A stretch of 64,000 bases of DNA from an uncultured Bacteroidota bacterium (GTDB lineage: Bacteria; Bacteroidota; Bacteroidia; Bacteroidales; P3): assembly GCA_902800395.1 (NCBI GenBank), contig CADCEC010000004.1:256381-320380 (forward strand), written 5' to 3'. This document shows positions 2,281 to 64,000 of this stretch, piece after piece. Below the pieces are notes generated by a model. That model was not told where the DNA came from and did not search any database. It worked only from the letters and a program-made list of their open reading frames with translations. Within the stretch, counting starts at the first letter, position 1; every line of letters starts with the position of its first letter. The position numbers and the translations under genes were made by a program.

Positions 2281-2313
2281 CTATTAACTATTATCTATTA
2301 ACTATAAACTATT
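2281..2313. repeat. 7-bp tandem tract (TATTAAC units)
   Basis: The whole spacer between the two paralogous membrane genes consists of about five degenerate copies of the 7-mer TATTAAC. It is one of the many short-unit tracts in the window and leaves no room for an independent promoter. Confidence 0.75.
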
Positions 2314-3450
2314 ATGACTCCCGTATCCATCGGACTCAACATTCTCGGCCTCGTCACCCTCTTCTGGCCCCTCGCCACGCTCCTTGTCAAGCGTCATGTG
2401 CTCAAGGCGCAATGGCTGATGATGCTGGCCATGTCGATGTTGGCATTCACCTTCTTCCTGTTGGGAAGCCTCTTTAACATATTCTTAATGGGCGAGTATC
2501 GCCTGCTGATACTGTTTTTTATCGTCACCCTTCTCACTCCCCCCATCATCCATATCGCCCTAACTGTCCTTACCCAGCCGCGGGCCTCATTTCTTTCTGC
2601 ACGGATGCTCCTTTTTCCATCGATTCTTTGTATTGTGCTCATGATTCTCTCTGTCATCATCGGTGGGGCTGACCTGTACCGCCTCTGGACAGTGAGTGGA
2701 CTCGAAGGCTCGTCGTGGAGCTTCCTCCCCGATAACTGGACTTACAACTTCATCGTTATCGTCAACTTCTACCTTTTCTGGAGTGTGTTCGTTTTCGAGA
2801 CCCTTTTTATTCTCATCACCAGTATCCGCCAATTCTTCCATTTCAAGCGCATCAACTCCGAGTTCTATACCTCCGACCGTTTCCAAAACCTCAACCTTAA
2901 GGGTGTCTATATCGCCACCAACCTCGGCCTTGCCTTTTTGTTCCTTGGCCAGTTCACTGATATCTTCAATCCCGGAAACGAGCGCTGGTTCTTCTTCGCC
3001 TACTGCCTCCCGTTGGCCCTCCTCCTTTTCTATATCGGCCGCTCCGTCTACAGGATAAACATCGGTGCCGAACGCCTGCCCCTTCGCTCCCGCAGCCGCA
3101 GGGACCCCGCCTTCTTGGTGCGTCAGTTGGATGAATATGTGGAAAAAGAGCAGGCTTTCCTGAATCCCGACCTGTCGGTCTTCATGCTTGCGGAGCATCT
3201 CCACACCACCGAGGACGACATTATCGATACCATCCACCGCTATCACGGCGTTCCCTTTGGCGACTATATCGACGCTCTGCGTGTCCAGCACGTTGTCTCA
3301 CTCATGCTTGCCGAACATCCTGATATCGAGAACCCCGACGTGCTAGCCCATCTCGCCCACCGCTCCGGCTTTCTTACCGTCGACGCCCTCGAAGACGCTT
3401 GGTATCGCAACTTCCGTGCCCCCATTTCTCAGTCGCACATTCTCAACTAA
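2314..3450 (+). CDS. Membrane-bound AraC-like transcriptional regulator
   Basis: 378 residues. The first ~245 hold six to seven hydrophobic segments. The cytosolic tail (about 265-378) follows the AraC/XylS plan seen in many Bacteroidetes membrane regulators: FLNPDLSVFMLAEHLHTTEDD, then GVPFGDYIDALRVQHVVSL, then a second HTH ending HRSGFLTVDALEDAWYRNFRAPIS. The second HTH is somewhat divergent (usual IA--GF-S---F---FK--G--P), so DNA binding is likely but not certain. The layout implies a one-component sensor that detects an envelope signal and acts on promoters from the membrane. It lies directly downstream of a shorter paralogue without the HTH tail. Targets are unknown. Confidence 0.75.
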   Translation: MTPVSIGLNILGLVTLFWPLATLLVKRHVLKAQWLMMLAMSMLAFTFFLLGSLFNIFLMGEYRLLILFFIVTLLTPPIIHIALTVLTQPRASFLSARMLLFPSILCIVLMILSVIIGGADLYRLWTVSGLEGSSWSFLPDNWTYNFIVIVNFYLFWSVFVFETLFILITSIRQFFHFKRINSEFYTSDRFQNLNLKGVYIATNLGLAFLFLGQFTDIFNPGNERWFFFAYCLPLALLLFYIGRSVYRINIGAERLPLRSRSRRDPAFLVRQLDEYVEKEQAFLNPDLSVFMLAEHLHTTEDDIIDTIHRYHGVPFGDYIDALRVQHVVSLMLAEHPDIENPDVLAHLAHRSGFLTVDALEDAWYRNFRAPISQSHILN

Positions 3451-3564
3451 TTACAAAATTAACATAAAAAAATTAACTTAAAAATGCAATAAAATGCAAT
3501 TTTTGCTGTTATTAATGTACTAAAGAGGAAAATAATTGCAGAAAACGCATAAACCGTTTATATT

Positions 3565-4260: not shown

Positions 4261-5018
4261 AACTCACGTTCTTAGGTACGGGAACCTCGCAGGGTGTGCC
4301 GGTAATTGCCTGCCGCTGCAATGTGTGCCGCTCGTCTGACGAGCGGGACACTCGTCTTCGTACCTCCGCTCTTTTGACTGTTGGTAATAATAATATATTA
4401 TTCGATATCGGCCCCGATTTTCGCCAGCAGATGCTACACCACCATGTTGACCATCTCGATGCCATCCTCATTACTCATGCCCACCGCGACCATGTGGGGG
4501 GCTTGGACGATATACGCTCCTTCAACTACGTGCAGCACAGTAAGATGAATCTCTACCTCAACGCCGAAGCCAAGACGGCGCTGCTGCGCGACTACAAGTA
4601 TATCTTCGACTACCATCAGTACCCTGGCCTTCCTGAGGCCGAGTTGCATGAGGTGGGGGAGAGCCCCTTCCTTGCCGCCGGTGAGACGGTCATCCCCATC
4701 TGTGCCATGCACAAGGACCTCCCCATCCTTGGGTTCCGCATCCGAAACTTCGCCTACATCACCGATGCCAACTACATCGCCCCCTCTGAGATGGAAAAGC
4801 TGAAGGGTGTCGATGTGATGGTTATCAACGCCTTACGTAAAGAGAAGCACTTCTCGCACTATTCTCTTCCAGAAGCCCTCGAAGTCATCTCGCAGGTCAA
4901 ACCGCGTGAGGCCTACCTTACCCATATCAGCCACGAACTGGGCCTGCATGCCGTCGTCGAGCGCGAGCTCCCCGCCGGCGTCCACCTCGCCTACGACAAC
5001 CGAACTCTTAACTTTTAA
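4257..5018 (+). CDS. MBL-fold metallo-hydrolase (PhnP-like)
   Basis: 253 residues starting with GTG, which overlaps the rprY stop. The N-terminus has GTGTSQGVPV followed by CRCNVC, as in PhnP/YycJ-like MBL proteins with an extra N-terminal Cys-rich metal site. The metal-binding HxHxDH motif is at 74-79 (HAHRDH); a later DAN and a C-terminal THISHELG supply further ligands. The family hydrolyses phosphodiester bonds in small molecules. The physiological substrate of Bacteroidetes members next to rprY is not known to me. The last codons run into a 7-bp tandem tract (ACTCTTA units, 5006-5031). Confidence 0.85.
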   Translation: MKLTFLGTGTSQGVPVIACRCNVCRSSDERDTRLRTSALLTVGNNNILFDIGPDFRQQMLHHHVDHLDAILITHAHRDHVGGLDDIRSFNYVQHSKMNLYLNAEAKTALLRDYKYIFDYHQYPGLPEAELHEVGESPFLAAGETVIPICAMHKDLPILGFRIRNFAYITDANYIAPSEMEKLKGVDVMVINALRKEKHFSHYSLPEALEVISQVKPREAYLTHISHELGLHAVVERELPAGVHLAYDNRTLNF

Positions 5019-5031
5019 CTCTTAACTAAAA

Positions 5032-5931: not shown

Positions 5932-5985
5932 CAACAGTCCCCCGTATATTATATATAGATTAAGAAATATAAAACATCAAATCAT

Positions 5986-6923: not shown

Positions 6924-9041
6924 ATGAAAAGAACAATACTTACAATGGCAGCGGCCGCCTTGTGTATGGCTGCCTGCAGTACGAAACAGGCCGAAGAGAA
7001 CGTCATCGGCAAGCCCAATGTCCCTGTCGTCGACGGCCGCTTTACTCCCGAGGTGATGTGGAGCCTCGGCGTCATGAGCGAGTATGCCGTCAGCCCCGAC
7101 GGCAGCCAGGTGCTCTACACCCTGCGCTATACCGACATGGAGCAGAACAAGAACAACGCCGAGCTGTATGTGATGCCTGTCGCCGGCGGCGAAGCCCAGC
7201 GCCTCACCACCACCGCCTCCACCGAGTTCAACCCCGCATGGATGGACAACGACAACATCCTCTTCTGCCGCGACACTAATATCGTCGCCATGAGCCTCAA
7301 GGACAAGAGCGAGAGCGTCGTGGCTGCCTGCAGCCGTGGTTTCGAGGGCTTTAAGTTGGCTCCCGACGGCAAGTCGCTAGTCTATATCAGCACCATCCCC
7401 GTCAAGCGTCCCGACCATATCGAGAAGCTCTATGCCGGCCTCGACAAGACCACCGGCCGCATCAACGAGGACCTCATGTATCGCCACTGGGATAACTGGG
7501 TGGACGAAATTCCCCACATTTACTATGTCCCCTTTGAGGGTGGCAAGGCCCAGATGGACAAGGCTGTCGACATCTTGGGAGACGAGCCTTACGAGAGTCC
7601 CATGCGTCCTTGGGGTGGCACCGAGCAGTATAACTACAGCCCCGACAGCAAGACCATCGCCTACACCTGCCGCAAGAAGACCGGCTACGACTATGCCATC
7701 TCCACCAACAGCGACATCTACCTTTATGATATCGCCACCGGCGAGACGAAAAACATCTCTGAGGGCATGATGGGCTACGACCAGAACCCCGTCTTTTCCC
7801 ACGATGGCAAGATGATTGCTTGGGAGAGCATGGAGCGCGACGGCTATGAGGCCGACAAGCAGCGCCTCATCGTCATGGACCTCGCCAGCGGCACCAAGGT
7901 CGACCTCACCGAGGAATTCGACTACGGCGTTAGCAACATCGTCTGGACCAACGACGACAAGGAGCTCCTCGCCGTCATCATGTTCCGCGGTACCCTCGAG
8001 GTCTTCGCCTTTGATAGAGAGACCAAAGCCCTCCGCCAGCTCACCGAGGGCCAGCACGACATCAACAGTTTCCAGCTCAATGGTAACACCCTCGTTGCCT
8101 CGCAGGTCTCCATGCAGTATCCTGCCACCCTCTACACCTACAACCTGAATGAGAACCAGGCCGAGGGTAAGAAACTCTCCACTTTCAACGATGAGACCCT
8201 CAACCAGGTGCGCATGGGCAAGGTCGAGCCCTACTGGATCAAGACCGTCGACGGCAAGGACATGCTCACATGGCTCATCTATCCTTACGACTACGACAGC
8301 ACCAAGACTTATCCCGCGCTGCTCTTCTGCGAGGGTGGTCCCCAGAGCATCGTCAGCCAGTTCTGGAGCACCCGTTGGAACTTCGAGGTGATGTCTGGCG
8401 CCGGCTACTTCGTCATCGCCCCCAACCGCCGCGGTGTCCCCGGCTTCGGTATGGAGTGGGAGGAGGAGATCTCCGGCGACTACGGCGGACTCTGCATGCA
8501 GGACTACATGGCCGCCACCGACTGGGCTGCCGCCAACATCAAGCAGATTGACAAAGAGCGCATCGGCGCCTGCGGCGCCTCCTTCGGCGGCTACAGCATC
8601 TACTGGCTCGCCGGACACAACCACGACGTCAAGGGCTACAACGAAGGCCGCCGCTTCAAGGCCTTCCTCGCCCACAACGGCATGTTCAACTTCGAGCAAC
8701 AGTACCTCGAGACCGAAGAAATGTGGTTCGAGAACTGGGAGATTGGCGGTCCCTACTGGGAGCGCGACAAGAACGCCAAGATCAAGAAAGGCTTCTCCAA
8801 CTCGCCCCACCTCTTCGTGGGAGAATGGAATACCCCCATCTGCGTCATCCACAGCGAGTTCGACTTCCGCATCGTAGCCTCGCAGGGCATGGCCGCCTAC
8901 AACGCCGCCCAGCTGCGCCGCATCCCCAGCCGTTACCTCTATTTCCCCGACGAGACACACTGGGTGCTGAAGCCCCAGAACAGCCTCCTCTGGCACCGTA
9001 ACTTCATCGACTGGTTCGATGAGTGGCTGAAAAAGAACTAA
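6924..9041 (+). CDS. S9 family peptidase, DPP5-like lipoprotein
   Basis: 705 residues with a lipoprotein signal (C18). The middle is a beta-propeller with WD40-like/TolB motifs (SPDGSQVLY, SPDSKTIAY, SHDGKMIAW). The C-terminal alpha/beta-hydrolase domain has the catalytic set S553 (GASFGGYS), D647 (HSEFDFRI) and H679 (DETHWVL). The end closely follows Porphyromonas DPP5 (dipeptidyl peptidase 5): GDYGG, ETEEMWFENWEIGG, WNTPI, PQN. The expected role is removing dipeptides from peptides at the periplasmic face for amino-acid uptake. It is the last gene before a strong terminator. Confidence 0.92.
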   Translation: MKRTILTMAAAALCMAACSTKQAEENVIGKPNVPVVDGRFTPEVMWSLGVMSEYAVSPDGSQVLYTLRYTDMEQNKNNAELYVMPVAGGEAQRLTTTASTEFNPAWMDNDNILFCRDTNIVAMSLKDKSESVVAACSRGFEGFKLAPDGKSLVYISTIPVKRPDHIEKLYAGLDKTTGRINEDLMYRHWDNWVDEIPHIYYVPFEGGKAQMDKAVDILGDEPYESPMRPWGGTEQYNYSPDSKTIAYTCRKKTGYDYAISTNSDIYLYDIATGETKNISEGMMGYDQNPVFSHDGKMIAWESMERDGYEADKQRLIVMDLASGTKVDLTEEFDYGVSNIVWTNDDKELLAVIMFRGTLEVFAFDRETKALRQLTEGQHDINSFQLNGNTLVASQVSMQYPATLYTYNLNENQAEGKKLSTFNDETLNQVRMGKVEPYWIKTVDGKDMLTWLIYPYDYDSTKTYPALLFCEGGPQSIVSQFWSTRWNFEVMSGAGYFVIAPNRRGVPGFGMEWEEEISGDYGGLCMQDYMAATDWAAANIKQIDKERIGACGASFGGYSIYWLAGHNHDVKGYNEGRRFKAFLAHNGMFNFEQQYLETEEMWFENWEIGGPYWERDKNAKIKKGFSNSPHLFVGEWNTPICVIHSEFDFRIVASQGMAAYNAAQLRRIPSRYLYFPDETHWVLKPQNSLLWHRNFIDWFDEWLKKN

Positions 9042-9066
9042 GAAGTAAGAGCTAAGAACTAAGAGT

Positions 9067-9596: not shown

Positions 9597-12338
9597 TTAG
9601 CTGAGGCTTGCAATCTGAGCCTTGAGGGCGGCAATCTTGGTCTCGGCGTCGCGCTGCTTGTTGCGCTCCTTCTCGATGACGGCGGCGGGGGCACCGTTGA
9701 CGAACTTCTCGTTGCTGAGTTTGCCCATGACGCTGCGCAGGAAGCCTTCAGCATATTTCAGCTCGTCCTGCAGCTTCTTGAGCTCCTCGTCTTTGTTGAC
9801 GTTCTCGGGCATCGGCACGAAGCACTCCATGGTGCCGACCATGAAGGAGAGTGCACCGGCGGGCTTCTCTTTCACCTCTTTGATGGCGCTGACATTAGCC
9901 AGTTTCTGCACGATGCCGTTGAAGTTGGCGAAGCGGTAGCGGTCGTCGGCAGCGATGAACGACACCTCGAGGGCCTCCTTCGGCGAGAGGTTGCGGGTGT
10001 TGCGGATGTTGCGCACGCCGGCGATAACCTCACGGGCGGTGTCGAACTCGTCGAGCATCCGCTGGTCGTAGAAGACGGAGGTGGGCATGTGCTGGTTCAT
10101 GATGCTGTAGTTGGCATTGATGAAAGCAGCCTGCTCGTCGTCCTTGCCGATGGTCTGTAGGGCATGCCATATCTCTTCGGTGACGAAGGGCATGAAGGGG
10201 TGCATGAGGAGCATGAGGCGGGAGAAGATGCTGATGGTGGCGTCGTAGGTCTCGCGGTCGATGGGGGTGCCGTAGGCGGGTTTCACCATCTCGAGGTACC
10301 ACGAGCAGAAGTCGTCCCAGATGAGCTTGTAGGTAGCCATGAGGGCCTCGCTGAGGCGATACTGGTCGAAGTCTTTCTCGATTTCCTCGATGACCTGGGC
10401 CATGCGCTGCTCCATCCACTGGACGGCGACGGAGTTGTTGTCGGACTGGTTGGACTGGTCAGACTTGTCGGACCCGTCGGACACTTTCCAGCCGGAGACG
10501 AGGCGCAGGGCGTTCCACATCTTGTTGCTGAAGTTGCGGCCTTGCTCGCAGATCTTCTCGTCGAAGAGGATATCGTTGCCGGCAGGGGCGGTGAGGAGCA
10601 TGCCCATGCGGACGCCATCGGCACCGTATTCTTCCATCAGTTTGATGGGGTCGGGGCTGTTGCCGAGCGATTTGGACATCTTGCGACCCAGCTTGTCGCG
10701 CACCACACCGGTGAAGTAGACGTTGCGGAACGGCACGTCGTGCATATACTCCTCGCCAGCCATAATCATGCGGGCCACCCAGAAGAAGATGATGTCGGGG
10801 GCGGTGATGAGGTCGACGGTGGGGTAGTAGTAGTTGATTTCAGGATTGCCGGGGTTGCGGATTCCGTCGAAGAGGGAGATAGGCCAGAGCCAAGAGCTGA
10901 ACCAGGTGTCGAGGGCGTCCTCGTCCTGACGGAGCTCGCCGGTGTAGTCGTATTTTTCCTTGGCAATCTTCTTGGCTTCTTCCTCGTTGAGGGCCACGAC
11001 GATCTCCTCTTTGCCGTTCACCTCGAGATACCAAGCCGGGATGCGATGGCCCCACCAGAGCTGGCGGCTGATACACCAATCCTGGATGTTCTCGAGCCAC
11101 TGGCGGTAGGTGTTCTTGTACTTCTCGGGGTAGAACTTAATCTTGCCTTCCATGACGGGCGGCAGGGCGATGTCGGCGAAGTGCTGCATCTTGAGGAACC
11201 ACTGCAGTGAGAGACGGGGTTCGATGGCGGTATCGGGGTTGCGCTGCGAGTAGCCCACCTTGTTGGTGTAGTCTTCCACTTTCTCCATGAGACCGGCGGC
11301 TTCGAGGTCTTTGGCAATCTGCTTGCGGCAGGCGAAACGGTCCATGCCGACGTAGAGGGGCGACTGCTCCGAGATGGTGCCGTTGTCGTTGAAGATGTCG
11401 ATGGTGTCGAGGTTGTGGGTCTTGCCGAGGTTGTAGTCATTGACGTCGTGGGCGGGGGTGACCTTTAGACATCCGGTGCCGAACTCGATGTCGACATAGC
11501 GGTCCTCGATGACGGGCACCTCACGACCCACGAGGGGCACGATGACGCGGTGGCCGCGGAGCCACTGGTTCTTCGGGTCTTTGGGGTTGATGCACATGGC
11601 GGTGTCGCCCATGATGGTCTCGGGACGCGTGGTGGCCACGACGGCGTAGTAGCCTTTTTCATCGCGGTGGATGATATTGCCCTGCTCTTCAAGGTCCTTA
11701 AGGTCCTTAAGGTCTTTAAGGTCCTTAATGTAGTATTTCAGGTAGTAGAGCTTCGAGCGCTCTTCTTTGTATTCTACCTCCTCTGTCGAGAGGGCGGTGA
11801 GGGCCTTGGGATCCCAGTTGATCATGCGGAGGCCACGGTAGATGAGACCTTTGTTGTAGAGGTCGACGAAGACGCGGGTGACGCTCTCGCTGCGGGTCTC
11901 GTCCATGGTGAAGGCCGTGCGATCCCAATCGCAGCTGGCACCGAGCTTGCGGAGCTGCTGCAGGATGATGCCGCCATGCTTGTGGGTCCACTCCCAGGCA
12001 TGCTCGAGGAACTGCTCGCGGGTGAGGTCGTGCTTCTTGATGCCCTGTTCCGAGAGAGCCTTCACCACCTTGGCCTCGGTGGCGATGGAGGCGTGGTCGG
12101 TGCCGGGGACCCAGCAGGCGTTCTTGCCCTGCATGCGGGCGCGACGGACGATGACATCCTGGATGGTGTTGTTGAGCATGTGGCCCATGTGGAGGACGCC
12201 GGTGACGTTGGGCGGCGGAATAACGATGGTATAGGGAACGCGGTGGTCGGGCTCAGAGTGGAAGAGTTTCTTGTCAAGCCAAAACTGATACCATTTCTCC
12301 TCGACGGCACGAGGGTCGTATTTCGAAGCGAGTTCCAT
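9597..12338 (-). CDS. valS: Valyl-tRNA synthetase
   Basis: 913 residues, class I. The HIGH-type motif is [12 protein letters not shown] near residue 38 and the KMSKS motif is [11 protein letters not shown]. The editing domain, the [14 protein letters not shown] block, the anticodon-binding domain and the C-terminal coiled coil ([19 protein letters not shown]) are all present. Two in-frame low-complexity stretches are unusual: a KDL repeat from 9-bp units (11691-11729) and an SDxSDxS stretch from 9-bp units (10441-10482). The start lies 2 bases after the beta-barrel-like gene, so both are probably one transcript. Confidence 0.97.
10441..10482 (-). repeat. 9-bp tandem tract inside valS (TCGGACnnG units)
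   Basis: Nearly five units such as TCGGACTGG, TTGGACTGG and TCGGACCCG. They are in frame in valS and encode alternating SD-type residues. The same 9-mer family recurs in the glucan synthase gene at 60521-60554 and 61962-61984. Confidence 0.85.
11691..11729 (-). repeat. 9-bp tandem tract inside valS (AAGGTCCTT units)
   Basis: Four copies of AAGGTCCTT, one with a single change, encoding four KDL tripeptides in the editing-domain region. Each unit is nearly self-complementary. Confidence 0.88.
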
Positions 12339-14458: not shown

Positions 14459-15523
14459 TTGAAAACGGAAAGTGGAAAGTGGAAAGTGTTGGTGCTGATT
14501 TGCGTCAGCATTGCTTTCCACTTTCCTCTTTCTACTTTCCACTCACTAAGGGCCCAGATTGCCGGCCTCAACACCTTGACGGTGCTGGACCTGAGTGGTC
14601 AGGCGCGGACGTCGGGATTGGGCTTTGACTACCTGACGCTCTACGACAACGACCCGACGGTGGGACTAGACAACCCGTCGCTGCTGCGCAAGGAGCTGTG
14701 CGGCATCGGGTCGCTGAGTTTCGTCTCCGTCTTTGACGGAGCCTCCATGGGATCGCTCTCCTATGCCCACCATTTCGAGCATTTCGGGACGCTGATGTTC
14801 TCTTTCCGTTTCAACAACTATGGCACTTTCGAAGGCTATGACGAAGAGGAGATGCCGATAGGTGATGTGTCGGCGGCCGACTATGCCCTCACCGTGGGGT
14901 GGGGGACGTGGCTCGACTCGAACTTCAGCGTGGGCGTGAACTTCAAACCTGTCCTGTCGCACTATGACAGTTACACCGCTTTCGCGGTGGCCTTTGATGT
15001 GGCGGGCAGTTTCGTTAGCAACAACCGCCGCTTCGCCGCCACGCTGATGGGTCGCAATATTGGGGCGCAGATTGCTACCTTTGACGGCACAAGCGAATCG
15101 CTGCCTTTCGAGGTGAGTGCCGAAGTGTCGTACAAGCTGTCCAAGGCACCGTTCCGCTTCTTCTTCGCTGCCACAGAATTGCAGCGATGGAATCTGCGCT
15201 ATGAAGACCCCAACAACCCCACCACGACGGTGGACCCTTTCACCGGCGAGGTGAAAAAGGAAGGGTGGTTCGAGGGCTTCTTCGACAACCTGTTGCGCCA
15301 CACGCAGTTTGGCGTGGAGCTGAACCTTGGCAAAGCTTTCTTCGCCCGCGTAGGCTACAGCTACCGTCAGACGGCGGAGATGAAAGCCATCGACGCTATC
15401 AACCTCAGCGGTTTCTCCTTTGGCTTCGGACTGCGGACCAAGCGGTTCGAGTTTAGTTATGCCCACAAGGACTACCACCTCACGCAGGCACCGGACTTCT
15501 TCACTTTGAGTTATAGGTTTTAG
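14459..15523 (+). CDS. porQ: Type IX secretion system protein PorQ
   Basis: 354 residues, outer-membrane beta-barrel of the PorV/PorQ (FadL-like) type: GLNTLTVLDLSGQARTSGLG and later the repeated strand pattern with YSYRQTAEM, GFSFGFGLRTKRFEFSYAH and a terminal SYRF. PorQ belongs to the T9SS attachment complex that anchors cargo. The start is odd: no ATG is available. The frame opens with TTG at 14459 and offers GTG/TTG codons at 14486-14494, and the signal-peptide region is built largely from a GGAAAGT 7-bp tract and its inverted copy. A usable hydrophobic core (VLVLICVSIAF) and an LRAQ cleavage site remain. Confidence 0.85.
   Translation: MKTESGKWKVLVLICVSIAFHFPLSTFHSLRAQIAGLNTLTVLDLSGQARTSGLGFDYLTLYDNDPTVGLDNPSLLRKELCGIGSLSFVSVFDGASMGSLSYAHHFEHFGTLMFSFRFNNYGTFEGYDEEEMPIGDVSAADYALTVGWGTWLDSNFSVGVNFKPVLSHYDSYTAFAVAFDVAGSFVSNNRRFAATLMGRNIGAQIATFDGTSESLPFEVSAEVSYKLSKAPFRFFFAATELQRWNLRYEDPNNPTTTVDPFTGEVKKEGWFEGFFDNLLRHTQFGVELNLGKAFFARVGYSYRQTAEMKAIDAINLSGFSFGFGLRTKRFEFSYAHKDYHLTQAPDFFTLSYRF
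14464..14541. repeat. Inverted pair of GGAAAGT 7-bp tracts at the porQ start
   Basis: Three GGAAAGT units (14467-14487) face inverted copies (CTTTCCA units, 14514-14541). GGAAAGTGGAAAG at 14474-14486 pairs perfectly with 14514-14526 (13 bp). The hairpin covers the porQ translation start. Confidence 0.85.
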
Positions 15524-19113: not shown

Positions 19114-19158
19114 TAAGGTAAAGTTTAAAGTTTAACGGTTAAAGTTTAAAGATTAAAG
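19113..19158. repeat. 7-bp tandem tract (AAAGTTT units) upstream of glyS
   Basis: About five degenerate AAAGTTT/AACGGTT units immediately before the glyS start. Similar units occur at 24768-24803. Confidence 0.75.
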
Positions 19159-24755: not shown

Positions 24756-24861
24756 ATAACGGTTAATGGGTAACGTTTAAAGTTTAACGTTTAACGGTTA
24801 AAGATGAAACTACCCACTGCCAACTACCCACTGCCCACTGCCCACTACCCACTATCAACTA
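24756..24861. repeat. Two adjacent 7-bp tracts (AACGTTT and CCCACTG units)
   Basis: The first part (24768-24803) is made of AACGTTT/AAAGTTT units, the second (24811-24858) of about seven CCCACTG/CCAACTA units. No gene is needed to explain this DNA. Confidence 0.82.
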
Positions 24862-37378: not shown

Positions 37379-37418
37379 TAGTGTTTAAATTGCTATAAGT
37401 TAGTCTTTTGTACACTAG

Positions 37419-37474
37419 TTGTTCAGTACTTGTTCAGTACTTGTTCAGTTAATCACTGAACAAGTACTGAACAA
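37419..37474. repeat. 11-bp tandem array with inverted partner
   Basis: Three TTGTTCAGTAC units (37419, 37430, 37441) face the inverted copies. Bases 37430-37449 pair perfectly with 37455-37474 (20 bp) around a TAATC loop. The array at 53784-53849 has the same plan. Confidence 0.92.
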
Positions 37475-39848: not shown

Positions 39849-40290
39849 AAATAGCGAGGGCCATTCTATCGCTCGGCACCTGTTGCTGAGAGGAAAGTCC
39901 GGGCAGCTCGAGCCACCATGCTTCCTAACGGGAAGGCACTTGGGTAGTTAACAATTAATAGATAAAAGTTAATAGTTAATTGTTCGGGTGACAGCGAGCG
40001 CCACAGAAAACAAACCGCCTTTTATCGTAAGGTGAGAGGTAAGGGTGAAAACGCGGGGTAAGAGCCCACGACGTGTCGCGGTGACGCGCACGATGGCAAG
40101 CCTCATGGGCTGAAAGACCATGTATACCGACATGTAAGGGCTGGCTCGCCCGAAGGGTCGGGAGTTGTCGGCAAAGCCGACACCCACCCATTGTCGGGGG
40201 GTAGGTTGATTGAGACCGTCGGTGACGGCGGCCCTAGATTGATGATAGAACACGACAGAACCCGGCTTACAGACCCAAGCTATTTTTTTT
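39849..40290 (+). ncRNA. rnpB: RNase P RNA, class A
   Basis: Conserved blocks in order: GAGGAAAGTCCGGGC (39888 on), CCACAGAAAACAAACCGCC, GGTAAGGGTGAAAACGCGG, GTAAGAGCCCAC, and AGAACACGACAGAACCCGGC near the 3' end. P1 is AAATAGC 39849-39855 with GCTATTT 40279-40285, running into a T-tract that serves as terminator. It is the ribozyme that removes tRNA 5' leaders. Unusual: a 7-bp tandem tract (39946-39984), with self-pairing ends AACAATTAA/TTAATTGTT, sits in a peripheral stem after the P9-like CTTCC-TAAC-GGGAAG hairpin. Confidence 0.96.
39946..39984 (+). repeat. 7-bp tandem tract inside RNase P RNA
   Basis: Units such as AGTTAAC, AATTAAT, AGTTAAT and AGTTAAT. AACAATTAA at 39950-39958 pairs with TTAATTGTT at 39976-39984, so the insert extends a helix and leaves the conserved core intact. 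Confidence 0.8.
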
Positions 40291-40332
40291 GAATTAAGAG
40301 TTAAGAAGTAAGAACTAAGATTAGAAGTCGAC

Positions 40333-47506: not shown

Positions 47507-47549
47507 TTATAAAGGAGATAAGGAGCCTGGAGATAAGGAGATAAGACAA

Positions 47550-48093: not shown

Positions 48094-48238
48094 GTTAAGA
48101 ATATGGAAGTTAAAGAAGTTATAGAAGTTAAAGAAGTTAAAGACAAATGTGCAAGACGATGCTATTGTCTTTAACTCCTAGCGAGCGAAGCGAGCGATAA
48201 CTTCTTTTATTCTTTAACTCCCTAACCTCCAAAAACAG
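48094..48238. repeat. 9-bp tandem tract with inverted partner between rsmD and purC
   Basis: GAAGTTAAA units (48109-48145), then inverted GTCTTTAACT (48167-48176) and AACTTCTTTTATTCTTTAACTCC (in part). AGTTAAAGAC pairs with GTCTTTAACT. A GCGAGCGAAGCGAGCG run lies at 48181-48196. Confidence 0.8.
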
Positions 48239-49191: not shown

Positions 49192-49676
49192 TGGAAATAG
49201 AGCGCAAATATCTTGTGCGGGAACTGCCATCGGACCTCGATGGTTATCCCCACGTCGAGATAGAGCAATGTTACCTATGCACATCGCCCACCGTGCGCAT
49301 CCGCCGGATGGGCGATGTGTATATCTTGACTGTCAAAGAGAAAGTAATAAGTGGAAAGCGGAAAGTGGAAAGTGGAAAGCCTGAGGCAATTGTGAATCGC
49401 GAGGAGGAGTTCGCCCTCAGTGCCGAAGCTTATGAACGTCTGAAGGCAAAATGCGAAGGACGTCCGGTGCTGAAGACCCGCTACAAGATTCCGCTGGAGG
49501 GTGGCCTCACAGCCGAACTTGATATCTTCCACGACGCCCATGAAGGCCTGCGCCTTGTCGAGGTGGAATTCCCCGACACCGCCGTCTCCAACACCTTCAC
49601 GCCCCCCGCCTGGTTCGGCGAGGATGTCTCCTCCGACCGCCGCTACCGTAACAGCTGGCTGGCATTCAACGAGTAA
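49191..49676 (+). CDS. CYTH-domain phosphatase-like protein
   Basis: 161 residues. The ExExK signature is E2, E4, K6 (MEIERKYLV); later RIRRMGDVYILTVK, LKTRYKI and LELDIF/VEVEF strands (tunnel fold) follow. Members hydrolyse inorganic triphosphate or make cAMP; this small form is usually a triphosphatase. A GGAAAGT tract (49351-49380) is in frame and adds SGKRKVESGKPE to a loop after the first strands. Overlaps purC by one base. Confidence 0.88.
   Translation: MEIERKYLVRELPSDLDGYPHVEIEQCYLCTSPTVRIRRMGDVYILTVKEKVISGKRKVESGKPEAIVNREEEFALSAEAYERLKAKCEGRPVLKTRYKIPLEGGLTAELDIFHDAHEGLRLVEVEFPDTAVSNTFTPPAWFGEDVSSDRRYRNSWLAFNE
49351..49380 (+). repeat. 7-bp GGAAAGT tract inside the CYTH gene
   Basis: About four GGAAAGT/GGAAAGC units in frame, in the loop between K-E-K and REEEF strands. 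Confidence 0.85.
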
Positions 49677-51442: not shown

Positions 51443-51502
51443 AATCTTAATGTTTTCTGTGTTTTATGTCGTTTTTCTCTCGGGGCTCGTTGGGGTGGCT
51501 CG

Positions 51503-51692
51503 ATTTCCCATTGGGATTTTGCAATTTCCCATTGGGATTTTGCAATTTCTCATTGAGATTTTTCATTTTCCCATTGGGATTTTTTCGTTTCTCATTGGGG
51601 CTTTAAAATTTCCCCACGGGATTTTTAATTTTCCCCACGGGATTTTGCAAAATCCCCACGGGATTTCTCAATTTCCCCACGGGATTTTTTCG
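51503..51692. repeat. Nine-unit 21-bp palindromic array
   Basis: Units start at 51503, 51524, 51545, then about every 21-22 bases. Five have TTCCCATTGGGATTTT-like centres and four TTCCCCACGGGATTTT; each unit is a short palindrome. Lies between the etfA stop and the acyl-CoA dehydrogenase start in an otherwise tight operon. There are no variable spacers, so it is not CRISPR. Confidence 0.92.
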
Positions 51693-53678: not shown

Positions 53679-53783
53679 CGAATAAATTGAAAATTGAAAA
53701 TTGAAAAATGAAAATTTAACAAAAAAATGACCCATTGAGTCTTTTCTTAACATATAGTAGCCTATATATACGATTGTTATATG

Positions 53784-53849
53784 TTTGTTGTTCGTTTGTT
53801 AATCGAACAACAAACGAACAACAAACGAACAACAAACGAACAACAAACG
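53784..53849. repeat. 11-bp tandem array with inverted partner
   Basis: Four perfect AACAACAAACG units (53806-53849). The 17 bases at 53784-53800 are the reverse complement of 53809-53825, around AATCGAAC. Same plan and AATC centre as at 37419-37474. The rest of the 303-base gap holds only AT-rich DNA and the two regulatory sites. Confidence 0.92.
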
Positions 53850-53889
53850 AATAGATAACGTACATCTATACTACTTGAATTTTTGAGCA

Positions 53890-53951: not shown

Positions 53952-55421
53952 TTATTTTTTGACGAATTCCACGCGGCGATTTTTGGCGCGGCCCTCGTCG
54001 GTGTTGTTGTCGGCGATGGGGGAATGGGAACCCTTACCCACAGCTGTGAGGCGAGACTTGTCGATGCCCTGATTCACAAGGGCGGCGACAATGGCCTCGG
54101 CGCGCTTCTGGGAGAGCGGGTCGTTGACCTTGTCGGAGCCGGTATTGTCGCAGTGGCCTTGGACTTCGAATTTAATGTCCTTTTTTTCATTCATCAGCTT
54201 GGCGATGCGGTTGATTTCCACCATGGATTCGGGCTTGAGGTCAGCTTTTCCGGTCTCGAAAGTGATGGCGTAGGTTACAATCTTGCCGTCGGAGGTCAGG
54301 CGGTCGTACAGCGGCACAGCGCCTTTGGCGAGGCGGACGTTGGAGATGCCCGAATATTTATAGGTGCCGTTATGCCGGAACCAGAAGCAGCGGGGCGCCA
54401 GGGCGACGGGGATGTTGATGACCCGCATGCCGTTGATGTAGCCCTTGAAGGCCCGCTGGTTGAAGGAGAAGGCGAAGTGGTTCCACTCGCCGGGCTTCAG
54501 GGGGTTGTCCTTGTTGTTGTAATCAGAATAAGCGTCATTCAGGCCCAGTTGTTTCTCTCCCGTCGTGGACGACTCCTTGTCTGGCTTGGTCATCGACCAG
54601 TACAGGGTGGAAGAACCGTCGCTGCGCCAGTTGAAGGTGATTTCTCCGCACTCACCGCTGTTCCAGTCGATTTTCTCCTCGTTGGCAAAGGTGAGGTGGA
54701 GGTCGTTGGTCTGGCTGTCATCGTATTCTGCTTCCACTTCATTGAGATAGAAGTCGAATTCCAGCGTGAAGACCTCCGGCAGGAAGGCGCGTTTTTCCTT
54801 CATCAGCGGGATCACCACTCCGTAGCCGTCATCGGTGAAGGCCAGGACCTTGCGGCCGGCTAAGGAGCCCACCTCGGCATAGCCTTCCATCAGGTCCCAG
54901 CGCGAGGGGAACTCGCCCAGCTTCTCGCTGGCGAAGTCGTCCTCGAAGAAGATTTCGTCGCCGGGGACGAAGTCGCTCTTGGCGTAGGCACTCTCCACCT
55001 GCTTCTTGGCTTTGGGCTTGGCAGCCGTTCCTGTGCCGGGTTTCTTGGCGCCGCATTCTTCGCAGAACTTGCCGCTGTTACCTTCCTTGCCACATTCGGG
55101 GCAGGTCCAGCCGGCATTCTGACCGGGCTTTTTGGCACCGCATTCTTCGCAGAACTTGCCGCTGTTGCCCTCCTTGCCACATTCGGGGCAGGTCCAGCCG
55201 GTGGCGGTCTTTTCTTCGGTCTCCTGCTCCGTCGTTTCGTTTTCCTCCTGCTCTTTTAGGTTGCCATCGAGCATGTCGTTCACTTTTTTCTCGACCTTGT
55301 TTTCGATATTCTGCTCGGCAGTTTCCTTGGCTTTCTGGCCGAGACGCTCGAGAAAGCTCTGTGCGCTGGCGATGTTGCCGGCAAGCATCAGGGAGGATAC
55401 AATCAGTACAAATCTTTTCAT
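53952..55421 (-). CDS. Exported OmpA-family protein with two zinc ribbons
   Basis: 489 residues. Signal peptide to NIASAQ; a charged helix; then two nearly identical 26-residue zinc ribbons (each WTCPECGKEGNSGKFCEECG), a middle jelly-roll-like region (about 165-370; LEFDFYLNEVEAEYDD, WNHFAFSFNQRAFKGYINGMRV, concanavalin-like), and an OmpA peptidoglycan-binding end (VQGHCDNTGSDKVNDPLSQKRAEA, GKGSHSPIADNNTDEGRAKNRRVEF). Zinc ribbons of this rubredoxin-like type are common in cytosolic proteins; on an exported one they are unusual. Last gene of the 57314-53952 group. Confidence 0.85.
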   Translation of the reverse strand: MKRFVLIVSSLMLAGNIASAQSFLERLGQKAKETAEQNIENKVEKKVNDMLDGNLKEQEENETTEQETEEKTATGWTCPECGKEGNSGKFCEECGAKKPGQNAGWTCPECGKEGNSGKFCEECGAKKPGTGTAAKPKAKKQVESAYAKSDFVPGDEIFFEDDFASEKLGEFPSRWDLMEGYAEVGSLAGRKVLAFTDDGYGVVIPLMKEKRAFLPEVFTLEFDFYLNEVEAEYDDSQTNDLHLTFANEEKIDWNSGECGEITFNWRSDGSSTLYWSMTKPDKESSTTGEKQLGLNDAYSDYNNKDNPLKPGEWNHFAFSFNQRAFKGYINGMRVINIPVALAPRCFWFRHNGTYKYSGISNVRLAKGAVPLYDRLTSDGKIVTYAITFETGKADLKPESMVEINRIAKLMNEKKDIKFEVQGHCDNTGSDKVNDPLSQKRAEAIVAALVNQGIDKSRLTAVGKGSHSPIADNNTDEGRAKNRRVEFVKK

Positions 55422-57461: not shown

Positions 57462-60400
57462 ATGAAGAATATTTATAAAGAGTTCAAAAACAGTGTAAAG
57501 GAGATTACACGGTATTATATGCTGCTGGTGGAGGAGACACGAAATCAGCGACTGGTGGGTAGCACCAACGAGTGGGTGCTCGATAATTACTACATGATTA
57601 GTGAGCAGGAGAAGGTGCTGAAGGAGGAGTTGAAGGGAGTGGAAAGTGGAAAGTGGAAAGTGGGAAGCAAGAGGGTGGATGTGTTGTGGAAGCTGCTGGA
57701 GGGCTACCTGCGGAAGTGCCACCACCAGGTGGACAAGACTTTATTCTTCCGCTACCTGAGCCAGGTGCAGGTGAAGGGCAAGGACTATCTGAGCTACCCC
57801 GAGGTGTGTGCGCTGCTGCCGCTGACGAAGGCCATCCTCATCAAAGAGTTGGCGGACCTGTGTCGTCAGCTGGAGGCTGAGAAGAGTTACCACTATGTGC
57901 CGACGGACCGCGGACAGGCGGACATGGAGCAGTTGGACAAGGCTGCGCAGGAGAACTTGCAGATGATGAATATCTTCAACTCGCTGAAGAAAATGACACG
58001 TCTGCCGCTGTCGGAGCTTATCGATGCGGTGAGTTTCTCGGAGCGTATGCTGAAGGGCGAGAAGGCCGGTATGTACGACGAGATGCAGGACAAGACGAAG
58101 GAGGACTACAGGGCGAAGGTGGTGCAGCTGTTGCGAAGTGGAAAGTGGAAAACGGAAAGTGGAAAGCGTCTGTCGGAGTATGAGTTTGTGAAGGAATTGG
58201 TGGCGAAGGCTGACGAAAAGGGAGAACATGTGGGGTGGCAGCTGTTTCCGCCGAAACGCTGGAAGGCCCGCGCACATAGTTATATCTGGATCGTTACGCT
58301 GGGAAGTCTGTTGCTGGCGGCATTGATAGGTTATGGGTTATGGGTTATGGGTTATGGAGATGGGCTTAATTGGCTGTGGGTAGTGCTGACTGTGTTGCTG
58401 TGGCTGCCAATGAGCCAGGTGATGATAGACCTCTTCAACTGGCTGCTGGGCAAGTTGCACAGGCCCATGGGAACGTTCAAGATGAAATTCAAGGACGGCA
58501 TGATTCCCGAGGAGTATACCACGATGGTCATCATGCCCACCATATTGAAGAACCGTGCGAAGGTGGAAGAGCTGCTGGGGGTGCTGGAGGTATACTATCT
58601 CTCCAACATCAATCGTGGTAATGGGCGCGATGGTTTTAGTGGAACGAATGGGCAGAATTTGTACTATACTCTCGTGGGCGATGCGGCATCGTACAAGGAG
58701 GCCGATGCACCGTGGGACGACGAGGTGGTGCAGGCCGGTTTGGAGAAAGTGAAGGAGTTGAATGAGAAATACGGTGCTCATATTTTCAACTTCGTCTATC
58801 GCAAGCGTGCCTGGAGCGAAGGCGAGCAGACTTGGCTGGGATACGAGCGCAAGCGTGGCGCGATACTGCACTTTAACGACTTGGTGTTGGGAAACACCAC
58901 CGAGGAGGAGAAACAGGTGCGTTTCCGCTGCGAGACCATCAGCGAGTGGCAGAACCGGCCGCCGCAGTTTATCATCACGCTGGACACCGATACCGAGTTG
59001 GTACTCTATTCAGCGCAGAAGTTGATTGGCGCAATGGCGCATCCGCTGAACCGTGCACAACTGAGCCCCGATGGACGCCGCGTGGACCGCGGTTACGGCA
59101 TCATGCAGCCGAGGGTGAATGTCGACGTGGAGGTGACTAATAAGAGCCGCTTTGCGCAGTTGTTTGCCGGCCTGGGTGGTCTGGATGTGTATACCACGGC
59201 CAGTTTCGAGCTTTATCAGGATATCTTCAACGAGGGCTCCTTCTGTGGCAAGGGCATCTACGACCTAAAGGTGTTCCAGCAGGTACTGAAGGGCACCTTC
59301 CCGGAGAATCTCATACTGAGTCACGATCTCATTGAGGGTTGTCATATCCGTTGCGGTCTCATCAACGATGTGGAACTCTTCGACGACAACCCGAGCAACT
59401 GGATTGACGACGCCAAGCGTCACCATCGCTGGACGCGCGGTGACTGGCAGATTATCCCGTGGCTGAAAAACAGGGTGAAGAATGAGAAGGGTGAGAGGGT
59501 GAAAAACCAGGTGAACACCATCGGCAAGTGGAAGATATTCGACAACCTGCGCCGCTCGATGCTGAGCCTTAGTCTGGTGGTTTTGATTTTGGTTGGTTAT
59601 GGAATCTCCGCGTGGCAGAATTACGCAGTTCAGCAAGGAATCAGTGGGTCGTGGTTTGTGCTGGTGGCACTTGTCGCTGTGGCGAGCCCGATAGTGTTCT
59701 TCATCGTGGGACAGGTGACGAAGGTGCCTCGTTTTGGCAAGCGCTACCGCTACTACATGACGCTGATGCGTGGATTCAAGGTGATTATCTACCGTTCTTT
59801 GGTGCAGTTCGCGCTGCTCCCCAAGGAGGCGTGGATGTATACCGACGCTGCTGTCCGGGCCTGCTACCGCATGTGGTTTTCGCATAGAAACCTGCTGGCA
59901 TGGATTACCAGCGACGAAGCCTCCAAGAGTACCAAGGGTACCTTGGGCGACTATTTGGGGAAATTCTGGATTAACTATGTGGTGTCTGCTGTGGTGTTCT
60001 GTATGGCACTGCTGGGCCATGTGGGCATCGGCGCCTGGGGAGCTGCAGGATTCTGCATGGCGACCTGGTGCAGTGCGCCCTTCCTGATGTACTGGCTGGG
60101 TAAGAAATTCCCACAGGACAAGAAGAACCTTAATGCGAAGGAGACCGACGAGGTGCGCCGTCTGGCGCAAAAGACCTGGAGTTTCTTCGACAAGCTGATA
60201 ACCGAAGAGAACAACTGGCTTATTCCCGACAATTATCAATTGAATCGTGACAAGAAGACCGACTACAAGACCTCACCGACGAATATCGGCTATTCGCTCA
60301 CTGCGGTGGTGAGTGCTGCAGAACTGCAATTCATCAGCGAGAAGGAGGCAGTGAGCCGCATCTCACAGATTATTCACACTGTCGGTCGACTTGAGAAATG

Positions 60401-63400: not shown

Positions 63401-64000
63401 GCGTCTCACCGCCACCGAGCCCCTCACCGATGTCTCTCTCCACTATCCCAACCGCAAGCGTCTGGGCTTCACAATGAGCATCCCCGCCAAGGGAGAAAAG
63501 GAGTTCGCCTATGTCATCGCTGTTGATACATTGGACGGCGATAACGTATCAACGTATCAACCTATCAACGTATCAACAATCTCCGCTGAGTTCGACAAGG
63601 TCGTCGAATACTGGGACCGCAAACTCTCCTTCATCCAGGTGGAGACTCCCGACCGCTCCTTCAACAACATGCTCAACCGTTGGTACCTCTACCAAGTCTA
63701 CTCCTCCCGTCTCTTCGCTCGTGCCGGCTTCTATCAGGTGGGCGGCGCCACAGGCTTCCGCGACCAGCTCCAGGATGTTATGTCACTCCTCTACAGCGAC
63801 CCCGACTATGCCCGTCGCCAAATTCTCGACCATGCGGCACATCAGTTCCCCGAAGGCGACGTGCTCCACTGGTGGCACGAAAGCCTCCATATGGGGGCCC
63901 GCACCACCTTCTCCGACGACTACCTCTGGCTCGTCTTCGTTACCTACCAGTATGTCAAAGTCACCGGCGACCGCTCCATACTCGAAGAAATGGTGCCCTT
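57462..64000 (+). CDS. Cyclic beta-1,2-glucan synthase-like protein (GT84 plus GH94), incomplete at the right edge
   Basis: An uninterrupted frame of at least 2179 codons from ATG 57462; no stop before the window end. N-terminal cytosolic part, membrane segments at about 271-333; a GT84-like glucosyltransferase with LDTDTEL (D508, D510) and RWTRGDWQ (656-663); membrane segments around 696-882; a glycoamylase-like domain (NWLIPDNYQ, TSPTNIGYSLTAVVSAAELQ); and a GH94 phosphorylase-type domain from about 1287 on (RRRVHVAAGK, VYSSRLFARAGFYQVGGATGFRDQLQD, HWWHESLHMGARTTFSDDYLWL). Cgs/NdvB proteins make and trim cyclic beta-1,2-glucan in the envelope. Six short tandem tracts are in frame (57635, 58135, 58329, 60521, 61962, 63541). 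Confidence 0.9.
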   Translation, partial: MKNIYKEFKNSVKEITRYYMLLVEETRNQRLVGSTNEWVLDNYYMISEQEKVLKEELKGVESGKWKVGSKRVDVLWKLLEGYLRKCHHQVDKTLFFRYLSQVQVKGKDYLSYPEVCALLPLTKAILIKELADLCRQLEAEKSYHYVPTDRGQADMEQLDKAAQENLQMMNIFNSLKKMTRLPLSELIDAVSFSERMLKGEKAGMYDEMQDKTKEDYRAKVVQLLRSGKWKTESGKRLSEYEFVKELVAKADEKGEHVGWQLFPPKRWKARAHSYIWIVTLGSLLLAALIGYGLWVMGYGDGLNWLWVVLTVLLWLPMSQVMIDLFNWLLGKLHRPMGTFKMKFKDGMIPEEYTTMVIMPTILKNRAKVEELLGVLEVYYLSNINRGNGRDGFSGTNGQNLYYTLVGDAASYKEADAPWDDEVVQAGLEKVKELNEKYGAHIFNFVYRKRAWSEGEQTWLGYERKRGAILHFNDLVLGNTTEEEKQVRFRCETISEWQNRPPQFIITLDTDTELVLYSAQKLIGAMAHPLNRAQLSPDGRRVDRGYGIMQPRVNVDVEVTNKSRFAQLFAGLGGLDVYTTASFELYQDIFNEGSFCGKGIYDLKVFQQVLKGTFPENLILSHDLIEGCHIRCGLINDVELFDDNPSNWIDDAKRHHRWTRGDWQIIPWLKNRVKNEKGERVKNQVNTIGKWKIFDNLRRSMLSLSLVVLILVGYGISAWQNYAVQQGISGSWFVLVALVAVASPIVFFIVGQVTKVPRFGKRYRYYMTLMRGFKVIIYRSLVQFALLPKEAWMYTDAAVRACYRMWFSHRNLLAWITSDEASKSTKGTLGDYLGKFWINYVVSAVVFCMALLGHVGIGAWGAAGFCMATWCSAPFLMYWLGKKFPQDKKNLNAKETDEVRRLAQKTWSFFDKLITEENNWLIPDNYQLNRDKKTDYKTSPTNIGYSLTAVVSAAELQFISEKEAVSRISQIIHTVGRLEKWNGHLYNWYDISTLKALPNFFISTCDSGNFVACLYVVKGFLSDLSDPSDLSDALLAKVQRLIDQTDFRKLYNPELDVFSIGYDTTNYTLLPYHYNNFASEARLTSFLTIAQGDAPYKHWFCLDKTLVQYEGYKGVASWYGTLFEYFMPLIFLPTYKHTLMDETYSFAIRAQKSFFPSPWGISETAYNELDDAQNYKYHAFGVPYLKFQNTTPDRIVVSPYSSLMTIGIDDRAVYENMQKFKALEMYDDFGFYESYDEEDHVPVKAHYAHHQGMILASLANYLCDHCLQRYFMQEPAMRSMETLLKEKAQVRPYIDLKVTQYKRYRYSKVQTESDARDFDTIANVPELGIISNGQYTVLMNDRGSGFSRYRNIMLGRYRKISADHYGTYVYIRDIRKDHLWCNTYAPLDVMPEGYHVSFASDKMTFLRIDDGIETKTEVTVLKDRSAEIRRLTFTNNNSEDVDLELTTYGEVVLAPIEEDVNHRVFNGMKITSEFDKEHETLVFSRPGNYGTRNYMIHKLWLSDPSDKSDVVEYETSRVKFIGRGNSLRHADIIDNRRTLTATVGTTLDPVMSMRRRVHVAAGKSVEAYVLTGFAKEKDHLLQLTEQYQSGVDVEHAFKTASVFNNMRTSMSLLKGSQMRLYGSISKYMAQTATLGNDRQALLTRNTLSQSGLWRFGISGDLAILLMEIDSMERSGFAKEMLRAFEYYKVHGMRLDLVFINDAPLHEREGLSHFIRNMANTEHLWAEHSDAGKVYVLDGSDVTEAERILLRTVARLTFNTADGITVEEQLRRLEIANQHYQDKVEYPVLKPNREFRVWSNLEFYNQYGGFDREGRDYVVTNTNTPMPWINVLSNEQHFGCIVSSTMAGFTFAHNAQQFKLTGWSNDIVRDNPAEMLLINKQQFVPATARHGQGWSAFDAEYDDMKVAVRVFVACDKPEKYYQIRVNNKKDVPMEVQLDMVYKLVLGMSEEQTARYLYSEWDEASNTLSVRNVYHAIYHNQVVRLTATEPLTDVSLHYPNRKRLGFTMSIPAKGEKEFAYVIAVDTLDGDNVSTYQPINVSTISAEFDKVVEYWDRKLSFIQVETPDRSFNNMLNRWYLYQVYSSRLFARAGFYQVGGATGFRDQLQDVMSLLYSDPDYARRQILDHAAHQFPEGDVLHWWHESLHMGARTTFSDDYLWLVFVTYQYVKVTGDRSILEEMVP
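57635..57665 (+). repeat. 7-bp GGAAAGT tract in the glucan synthase gene
   Basis: Three to four GGAAAGT units in frame (VESGKWKVGS). A second such tract is at 58135-58167. Confidence 0.88.
58135..58167 (+). repeat. Second GGAAAGT tract in the glucan synthase gene
   Basis: Units GGAAAGT, GGAAAAC, GGAAAGT, GGAAAGC in frame (SGKWKTESGK). Confidence 0.85.
58329..58357 (+). repeat. 7-bp GGTTATG tract in the glucan synthase gene
   Basis: Four perfect GGTTATG units; they encode part of a membrane helix (YGLWVMGYG). Confidence 0.9.
60521..60554 (+). repeat. 9-bp GTCCGACTT tract in the glucan synthase gene
   Basis: Nearly four units encoding [13 protein letters not shown]; a shorter relative is at 61962-61984. 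Same unit family as the valS tract at 10441. Confidence 0.88.
63541..63577 (+). repeat. 8-bp ACGTATCA tract in the glucan synthase gene
   Basis: Four units (one with a change) in frame, encoding VSTYQPINVST. Confidence 0.88.

What the first reader, a model, noticed from the sequence alone, without database searches (positions are those of the whole stretch)
2281..63577. A window-wide family of short tandem tracts with 7, 8, 9 or 11 bp units
Seen directly: more than 25 tracts of 3-9 units each, in spacers (2281, 5006, 9041, 19113, 24756, 40293, 47514, 48109, 53688), inside genes in frame (valS, rho, feoB, ABC, CYTH, glucan synthase) and in RNase P RNA. Within a tract the unit size is fixed; units of different tracts differ, but some recur at distant loci (GGAAAGT at 14467, 49351, 57635, 58135; TCCGACnnG at 10441, 60521, 61962). 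Recurrence of the same unit at unlinked genes argues for copying or templating between loci, not independent slippage alone. I know no named element that fits. This is the strongest candidate in the window for an undescribed process, and it may be a lineage habit of Bacteroidales.
Basis: partly seen in the sequence, partly recalled or inferred. Interest (0 to 1): 0.85.

Follow-up and report, generated by a model that had tools for sequence, protein, structure and literature searches.

The report
Short repeat patches scattered through genomes
A genus of uncultured Bacteroidales bacteria carries, in gene gaps and even inside conserved genes, many patches of roughly 33 bases made of a 7-, 8-, 9- or 11-base word repeated in tandem; the words change between sister species, which points to a continuing and unexplained patch-writing process.

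Summary
The tracts are real and far above chance. The window lies in a 2.41 Mb genome of a large Bacteroidales genus. In 864 kb of it I counted 276 arrays of period 7, 8, 9 or 11. Density is 3.19 per 10 kb here and 0.12 in stretches of ten other families.

One word recurs at unlinked loci (7-mers: 182 same-unit pairs; permutation maximum 38). Arrays of one word tend to start and end at fixed positions of that word. Median length is 32-34 bp whatever the word length. At orthologous sites sister species carry different words or none. 24 of 170 arrays have a close inverted partner. In genes the frame is nearly always kept.

Unit-variant order is not shared between loci beyond chance, which speaks against block copying of existing arrays. 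Loss of MutS, Y1 transposases and RVT_1 reverse transcriptases do not track the arrays.

Dispersed heptamer arrays are known from cyanobacteria, Beggiatoaceae, Xanthomonas and a few Bacteroidetes: a new variant of a known kind. Best reading: short-template patch synthesis at breaks or gaps, then selection. The enzyme is unknown.

The parts
2278..2312 (.). 7-mer array TAACTAT x5, spacer
   Evidence: G052 has a different 7-mer-like spacer here
5003..5027 (.). 7-mer array AACTCTT x3.6 at gene end and spacer
9033..9064 (.). 7-mer array AAGAACT x4.6 at gene end and spacer
10443..10482 (-). 9-mer array in valS coding sequence; array-free in G052, G012, G023 (net +21 here); an 8-mer array in G002 at this site
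11691..11728 (-). 9-mer array AAGGTCCTT x4.2 in valS; shared with G002; G012 has a 7-mer inverted pair; none in G052 and G022
14467..14543 (+). inverted pair of 7-mer arrays (GGAAAGT / CTTTCCA) around a small hairpin, by eye over the signal-peptide coding start of the next ORF; other species carry other units here
   Evidence: single-strand DNA fold z -6.53
19119..19158 (.). 7-mer array TAAAGTT x5.7, spacer; same array in G052 (L031/L080), not in L032 or L037
20401..20432 (+). 9-mer array in the rho ORF, in a low-complexity region
24771..24861 (.). two adjacent 7-mer arrays (TAACGTT; ACTACCC) in the spacer after feoB
27751..27784 (+). 8-mer array TCAAGCAA x4.2 in the ABC-transporter ORF, standard start phase after AC
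28628..28719 (+). 8-mer arrays AATGCGTT, ATTCGTTA, ACGCAATA in the same ORF; absent in L091 (net +66 here)
37408..37474 (.). 11-mer array with inverted partner, tight hairpin in a spacer
   Evidence: z -7.05
39956..39984 (+). 7-mer tract in a variable helix insert of RNase P RNA (39853-40285)
40294..40320 (.). 7-mer array after RNase P RNA; some other species have different 7-mers here
48106..48143 (+). 9-mer array GAAGTTAAA x4.2 ending in GACAAATG, hairpin arm
   Evidence: z -4.17
49349..49379 (+). 7-mer array AAGTGGA x4.4 in an ORF; net +18 against G052
53684..53714 (.). 7-mer array AAATTGA x4.4, spacer
53804..53851 (.). 11-mer array CGAACAACAAA x4.4 with inverted partner
   Evidence: z -6.40
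57638..57667 (+). 7-mer array AGTGGAA x4.3 in a long ORF; G052 has a different periodic sequence of the same length
58136..58166 (+). 7-mer array AAGTGGA x4.4 in the same ORF; present and diverged in G052
58329..58357 (+). 7-mer array GGTTATG x4.1 in the same ORF; G052 has TTTCAAT-like sequence
63543..63577 (+). 8-mer array AACGTATC x4.4 in the same ORF

Best explanation
The tracts are products of one lineage-wide, continuing process that writes patches of about 33 bp, made of a 7-, 8-, 9- or 11-base word repeated in tandem, into sites that tolerate foreign sequence: spacers, protein loops, signal peptides, a variable RNA helix. The words come from a limited set whose dominance differs between sister species. 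In genes a patch replaces part of the local sequence and the frame is kept. A minority come as inverted pairs and make hairpins. Shown: abundance, word recurrence, preferred ends, near-constant length, turnover between species, frame keeping. Inferred: the patch is filler DNA made by reiterative copying of a short template at a break or gap, ended by a length limit near three helical turns rather than by a unit count; selection then keeps what is tolerated. The enzyme and the template are unknown.
For: Period spectrum against shuffles. Same-unit pairs: 7-mers 182 v permutation maximum 38; 8-mers 18 v 4; 9-mers 16 v 3; 11-mers 6 v 1. Word dominance by species: AGTGGAAAGTGGAAAGTGG 191 matches in G000, 46 in G052; its reversal (word AAAGGTG) 29 and 180. 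TCAAGCAATCARGCAATC 55-320 overlapping matches in six genomes, reversed control 0. End phases within one genome: both ends p<0.005 for 8 of 11 words against uniform; against replanted arrays in the same flanks, start reached by 0 of 300 for 9 of 11 words, end by at most 2 of 300 for 10 of 11. Median length 32, 34, 33, 34 bp for periods 7, 8, 9, 11 (4.6, 4.3, 3.7, 3.1 copies; n=276). Different words at one site. Frame kept in 36 of 37 coding comparisons listed. In L074:4770 an array takes the place of a loop, net +18 against 11 of 11 relatives. No doubling signature in 7-mers (lag-2 minus lag-1 identity 0.001, s.e. 0.005).
Against: No strain pair was available, so no gain event was seen directly. 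Net length change at array-free coding sites varies (about +3 to +21, one +66), so it is no simple 33-bp insertion. AATTGAA and AATAGAT show no start-phase preference. 43 of 259 array bins match more than one tested word, so the words are not fully independent. Length varies little less than copy number (CV 0.214 v 0.236); period 9 is spread (spacer median 27.5); 11-mers elsewhere in the genus have median 38 bp; some spacer arrays reach 87-199 bp. Coding exceptions to frame keeping: 27751 v L091 (+7) and 2 of 6 at L060:8847, in both cases where the relative seems to have a gene end. No enzyme found.
Confidence: 0.5

Rival explanations
1. A conventional miniature mobile element, like Rickettsia palindromic elements or MITEs, moved in trans by a transposase; arrays are its arms or halves.
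For: Preferred ends, recurrence with unrelated flanks, inverted pairs with a small apex hairpin, in-frame copies in genes, a fixed GACAAATG border after several 8-10-mer arrays.
Against: Units and even unit lengths differ between copies and species; variant order is not inherited between copies; no target duplication was seen by eye; Y1_Tnp has no match in 7 of 25 genus genomes, among them G014 and G009 which have arrays. Other transposase families were not tested.
Confidence: 0.2
2. Local replication slippage from chance two-unit seeds, with selection removing harmful ones.
For: Arrays are tandem and mostly in spacers (7-mers 12.8 per 10 kb in spacers, 0.62 in genes). Loops over 3 nt escape mismatch repair well, as stated in PMC4060949 (passages).
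Against: It does not predict recurrence of the same word at unlinked loci, species-specific dominant words, preferred end phases or length independent of unit size. mutS1 is present over cut-off in 39 of 41 genomes.
Confidence: 0.17
3. The arrays are functional sites (protein binding, terminators, translational control) kept by selection.
For: At the site after the LAM gene 19 of 30 species have an array. GACAAATG after arrays sometimes holds a start codon (window 47545). Hairpins fold well.
Against: The word at a given site changes between species and many species lack it; arrays sit inside valS and other genes; there is no single motif.
Confidence: 0.1
4. Assembly artefact of metagenome-assembled genomes.
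For: All genomes with names here are titled MAG or uncultured; contig ends are rich in one word in G068.
Against: The same arrays occur at orthologous sites in separately assembled species (19119; L060:10315 in G000 and G052; valS 11691 in G000 and G002); frames stay open.
Confidence: 0.03

Closest known systems
STRR heptamers of heterocystous cyanobacteria, also in rnpB (Vioque 1997; seen as a reference title only; rest recalled)
   Same: 7-bp tandem units dispersed through a genome, in spacers and in RNase P RNA
   Different: Here also 8-, 9- and 11-bp units, many words, many copies in coding sequence; in RNase P RNA I saw it clearly only in this genome
GGGAATC (Xanthomonas) and GGGGA(C/T)T (Nostoc) heptamer repeats (PMC4692102, passages)
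   Same: Dispersed heptamers on both strands, preference for four units, inverted pairs in Xanthomonas, not at the same genes in two related species
   Different: Those are G-quadruplex formers and mostly intergenic; here 12 of 276 arrays have three or more GGG or CCC and the preference follows length, not unit count, so quadruplexes need not explain it
TAACTGA repeats of marine Beggiatoaceae, cyanobacteria and five Bacteroidetes (PMC4679880, abstract and sections 10 and 24)
   Same: Dispersed heptamers, patchy across phyla, absent from matching spacers of close relatives
   Different: One word, largely upstream of start codons in BOGUAY; TAACTGA doublets are 0 in 864 kb here
Rickettsia palindromic elements (PMC10969869, passages)
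   Same: Repeats inserted in frame in unrelated genes
   Different: RPEs are about 150 bp families with conserved sequence; here about 33 bp of periodic words

Membership tests
Dispersed heptamer SSR (STRR / GGGAATC / TAACTGA kind) | Heptanucleotide tandem arrays scattered through the genome well above chance | tested here: met
   165 of 276 arrays have period 7; shuffles near 0
Dispersed heptamer SSR (STRR / GGGAATC / TAACTGA kind) | The named words of those families | tested here: not met
   TAACTGA, GGGAATC, GGGGATT and GGGGACT doublets 0 in 864 kb
Dispersed heptamer SSR (STRR / GGGAATC / TAACTGA kind) | Unit length seven only | tested here: not met
   37 arrays of period 8, 40 of 9, 34 of 11
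G-quadruplex repeats | Four G-tracts of three or more | tested here: not met
   12 of 276 arrays have three or more GGG or CCC
Rickettsia palindromic element / MITE | Copies homologous over the element, with terminal inverted repeats | tested here: not met
   24 of 170 arrays have an inverted partner; flanks unrelated
Rickettsia palindromic element / MITE | In-frame insertion in unrelated genes | tested here: met
   54 of 148 arrays lie inside ORFs by a crude ORF caller
Rickettsia palindromic element / MITE | Target-site duplication | tested here: inconclusive
   None seen by eye at coding sites; sites too diverged to be sure
REP element moved by RAYT | Y1_Tnp gene in the genome | tested here: not met
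   No PF01797 match in 7 of 25 genus genomes, including array-bearing G014 and G009
Reverse-transcriptase-written repeat | An RVT_1 gene in the genome | tested here: not met
   Matches in 17 of 41 genomes; none in array-rich G002 (98% complete). RT kinds outside PF00078 not tested

The most novel reading that the evidence does not exclude
An undescribed enzyme or repair route in these Bacteroidales synthesises about 33 nt of DNA by reiterative copying of a 7-11-nt template, a bacterial analogue in logic of telomerase or polymerase-theta filler synthesis, and inserts it at breaks across the genome; species differ in the templates they hold.
Probability: 0.28. Interest if true: 0.9.

Novelty: new variant of a known kind. 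Interest (0 to 1): 0.66.

Why it matters
Heptamer repeats of bacteria have been known for decades without an origin. Here a genus with more than 59 sampled species gives a natural experiment: the same sites, different words, preferred ends and a length independent of unit size. That makes the origin question testable, questions the quadruplex account of the four-unit preference, and shows a process that rewrites pieces of conserved proteins (valS among them) and signal peptides within a genus.

Tried and rejected
Block copying between arrays: variant order shared in 2 of 666 AAAGTGG pairs (null maximum 4) and at most 1 pair for each of the other tested words. Doubling 1-2-4: no excess identity at lag 2 in 7-mers. 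MutS loss, Y1_Tnp, RVT_1: no tracking. A conserved apex palindrome GGCTGACGCGTCAGCC: 6 places in G041, 1 each in G052 and G068, 0 in G000, G012 and four other-family genomes, so not general. Plasmid and phage collections: one array region tried in each, no match. Viral contigs: the 8-mer pattern 0, the AGTGGAA pattern 13 stretches. RNase P RNA: I expected variation in the same helix across the genus; tracts inside the RNA were clear only in the window, and my pattern missed several loci. A uniform null for end phases was too simple; I repeated it with arrays replanted in the same flanks. In one search the excess of inverted partners vanishes at score 20 (4 v 4).

Full report
Where it is. The window is G000:C4:256381-320380 of a 2,405,839-base genome in 21 contigs. 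The tool places 58 further sampled species in the same genus, drawn from a larger group. That RUG stands for rumen uncultured genome is recalled.

Tandem Repeats Finder and a lag test both find the tracts. In 464 kb of this genome (window plus 20 stretches) the counts at score >=13 are 82 arrays of period 7, 23 of 8, 25 of 9 and 15 of 11; codon-shuffled copies give 0 to 0.67. Periods 3-6 give 2 arrays in all and 13 none; 10 gives 6 and 12 gives 3. With 20 more stretches (864 kb, score >=12) there are 276 arrays of period 7, 8, 9 or 11.

Lineage. Density per 10 kb is 3.19 in this genome, 2.07 in twenty stretches chosen for orthology to the window, 0.97 in ten other stretches of the genus (four of these ten have none), and 0.12 in ten stretches of ten other families (2 arrays in 166 kb). 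The other-family stretches are mostly lower in G+C (0.31-0.51), so the contrast is not perfectly matched. Among 22 further named Bacteroidales loci found through FeoB (L038-L059) the density runs from 0 to 6.8, so the habit is patchy beyond the genus.

Recurrence of words. Among 84 period-7 arrays there are only 34 units; 182 pairs share a unit, against a mean of 20.4 and a maximum of 38 when the letters of each unit are permuted. Dominance differs by species: AAAGTGG in G000, AAAGGTG in G052.

Ends and length. Arrays of one word at unrelated loci begin and end at preferred letters. For TCAAGCAA 19 of 31 arrays in this genome start at the same letter, mostly after AC. Against arrays replanted at random phase in the same flanks, the start preference is reached by 0 of 300 replicates for 9 of 11 words and the end preference by at most 2 of 300 for 10 of 11; AATTGAA shows neither clearly. 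Several 8-10-mer arrays (GGAGATAA, GAAGTTAAA, GGAGTGAAA) run into the same border GACAAATG: by my eye 15 of 25 GACAAATG sites in 464 kb follow such an array. Median lengths are 32, 34, 33 and 34 bp for periods 7, 8, 9 and 11, so copy number falls from 4.6 to 3.1. Other species of the genus give 31, 33, 34 and 38 bp. Length is thus closer to constant than copy number, but not strictly so, and period 9 is spread.

Turnover. At the site after the LAM (lysine-2,3-aminomutase-like) gene 19 of 30 species have an array of score >=9 within 150 bases of the stop, with at least nine different units of 7, 9 or 10 bp, often as inverted pairs; 11 of 30 have none by that measure. By eye the arrays there lie over the signal-peptide start of the next gene. 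In valS 10 of 30 species carry arrays of 7-, 8- or 9-bp units, in a few loop positions (I set aside the conserved RNIRNTRN and two similar protein-like rows). The window site 11691 has a 9-mer in G000 and G002, an inverted 7-mer pair in G012 and none in G052 and G022. At L074:2239 four species have different 7-mers at equal length. Some arrays are shared: 19119 and L060:10315 with G052.

Frame. In one search, 36 of 37 coding-site comparisons differ from the window by a multiple of 3 (some relatives count twice under two locus ids); the exception is 27751 against L091 (+7), where the relative seems to have a gene end. In one search the L074 coding sites (27 comparisons) all differ by multiples of 3; at L060:8847, near a gene end, 2 of 6 do not. 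An array at L074:4770 stands where 11 of 11 relatives have a shorter array-free loop (net +18).

Hairpins. 24 of 170 arrays have an inverted partner within 200 bp at score >=12 against 5 of 170 in a null; at score >=20 it is 4 against 4. Four window examples fold as single-stranded DNA with z from -4.2 to -7.1. Period-11 arrays are the most often paired (by eye).

Mechanism. Local slippage does not predict shared words, species-specific words, preferred ends or a length independent of unit size. A single mobile element does not predict different units and unit lengths. Copying of old arrays would carry their variant order along, and it does not. What remains is fresh synthesis of a clean array from a shared short source, about 33 nt at a time, with loss of some local sequence. 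I infer filler synthesis at breaks or gaps. mutS1 is present over cut-off in 39 of 41 genomes searched. Y1_Tnp has no match in seven of 25 genus genomes and RVT_1 none in several array-bearing ones such as G002, so neither is required.

What is known. STRR, GGGAATC/GGGGA(C/T)T and TAACTGA heptamers are the same kind of thing in other phyla; papers seen as stated in Closest known systems. PMC4692102 (passages) reports a preference for four units and ties it to quadruplexes; here four units are also usual for 7- and 8-mers without quadruplex potential. PMC12699852 (passages) notes enrichment of 6-9-bp repeats in some prokaryotic phyla and high repeat density in Bacteroidota. In nine paper searches I saw no description of this genus, of the length rule or of the end rule; most subscription papers are not in that library.

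Noticed in passing
L333-L345: Viral-labelled contigs (13 stretches, G+C 0.30-0.64) carry exact AGTGGAA arrays, two of them with inverted partners (L334, L345), so this word is not confined to the genus; the contigs' hosts are unknown.
   Followed up: partly
window 47545, 48142; L063:14240; L073:6060: GACAAATG is a shared border after arrays of several different 8-10-mer words, in spacers and inside genes; at 47545 it contains the start codon of the RsmD-like gene.
   Followed up: partly
window 14459-14560, 40294-40420; L069:14772: Signal-peptide coding starts appear to be built from inverted tandem arrays: the purine-rich arm codes the charged N-region, the pyrimidine-rich arm the hydrophobic core (read by eye).
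   Followed up: partly
L061:12953, L062:5083, L068:3601 and window 37408, 53804: 11-mer arrays sit mostly in tight spacer hairpins and may be a class of their own (AACAATGGTTA, AACGAACAACA).
   Followed up: partly
L060-L079 and window: A palindromic dispersed repeat containing CAGGGAATGAATTCCCTG occurs six times in 464 kb (16-mer counts); not an array.
   Followed up: no
L060:1-126: The first 126 bases of contig C1 recur at 91-100% identity at many contig ends of other species: a conserved repeat that breaks assemblies.
   Followed up: no
G021: Genus member at 98% completeness without a mutS1 match over cut-off; its array density was not measured beyond one 19-kb stretch with 2 arrays.
   Followed up: no
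window 35843-36966, 51490-51689, 55036-55201: Longer in-gene repeats of period 54, 126, 24, 21 and 87 bp; they look like ordinary protein repeats.
   Followed up: no
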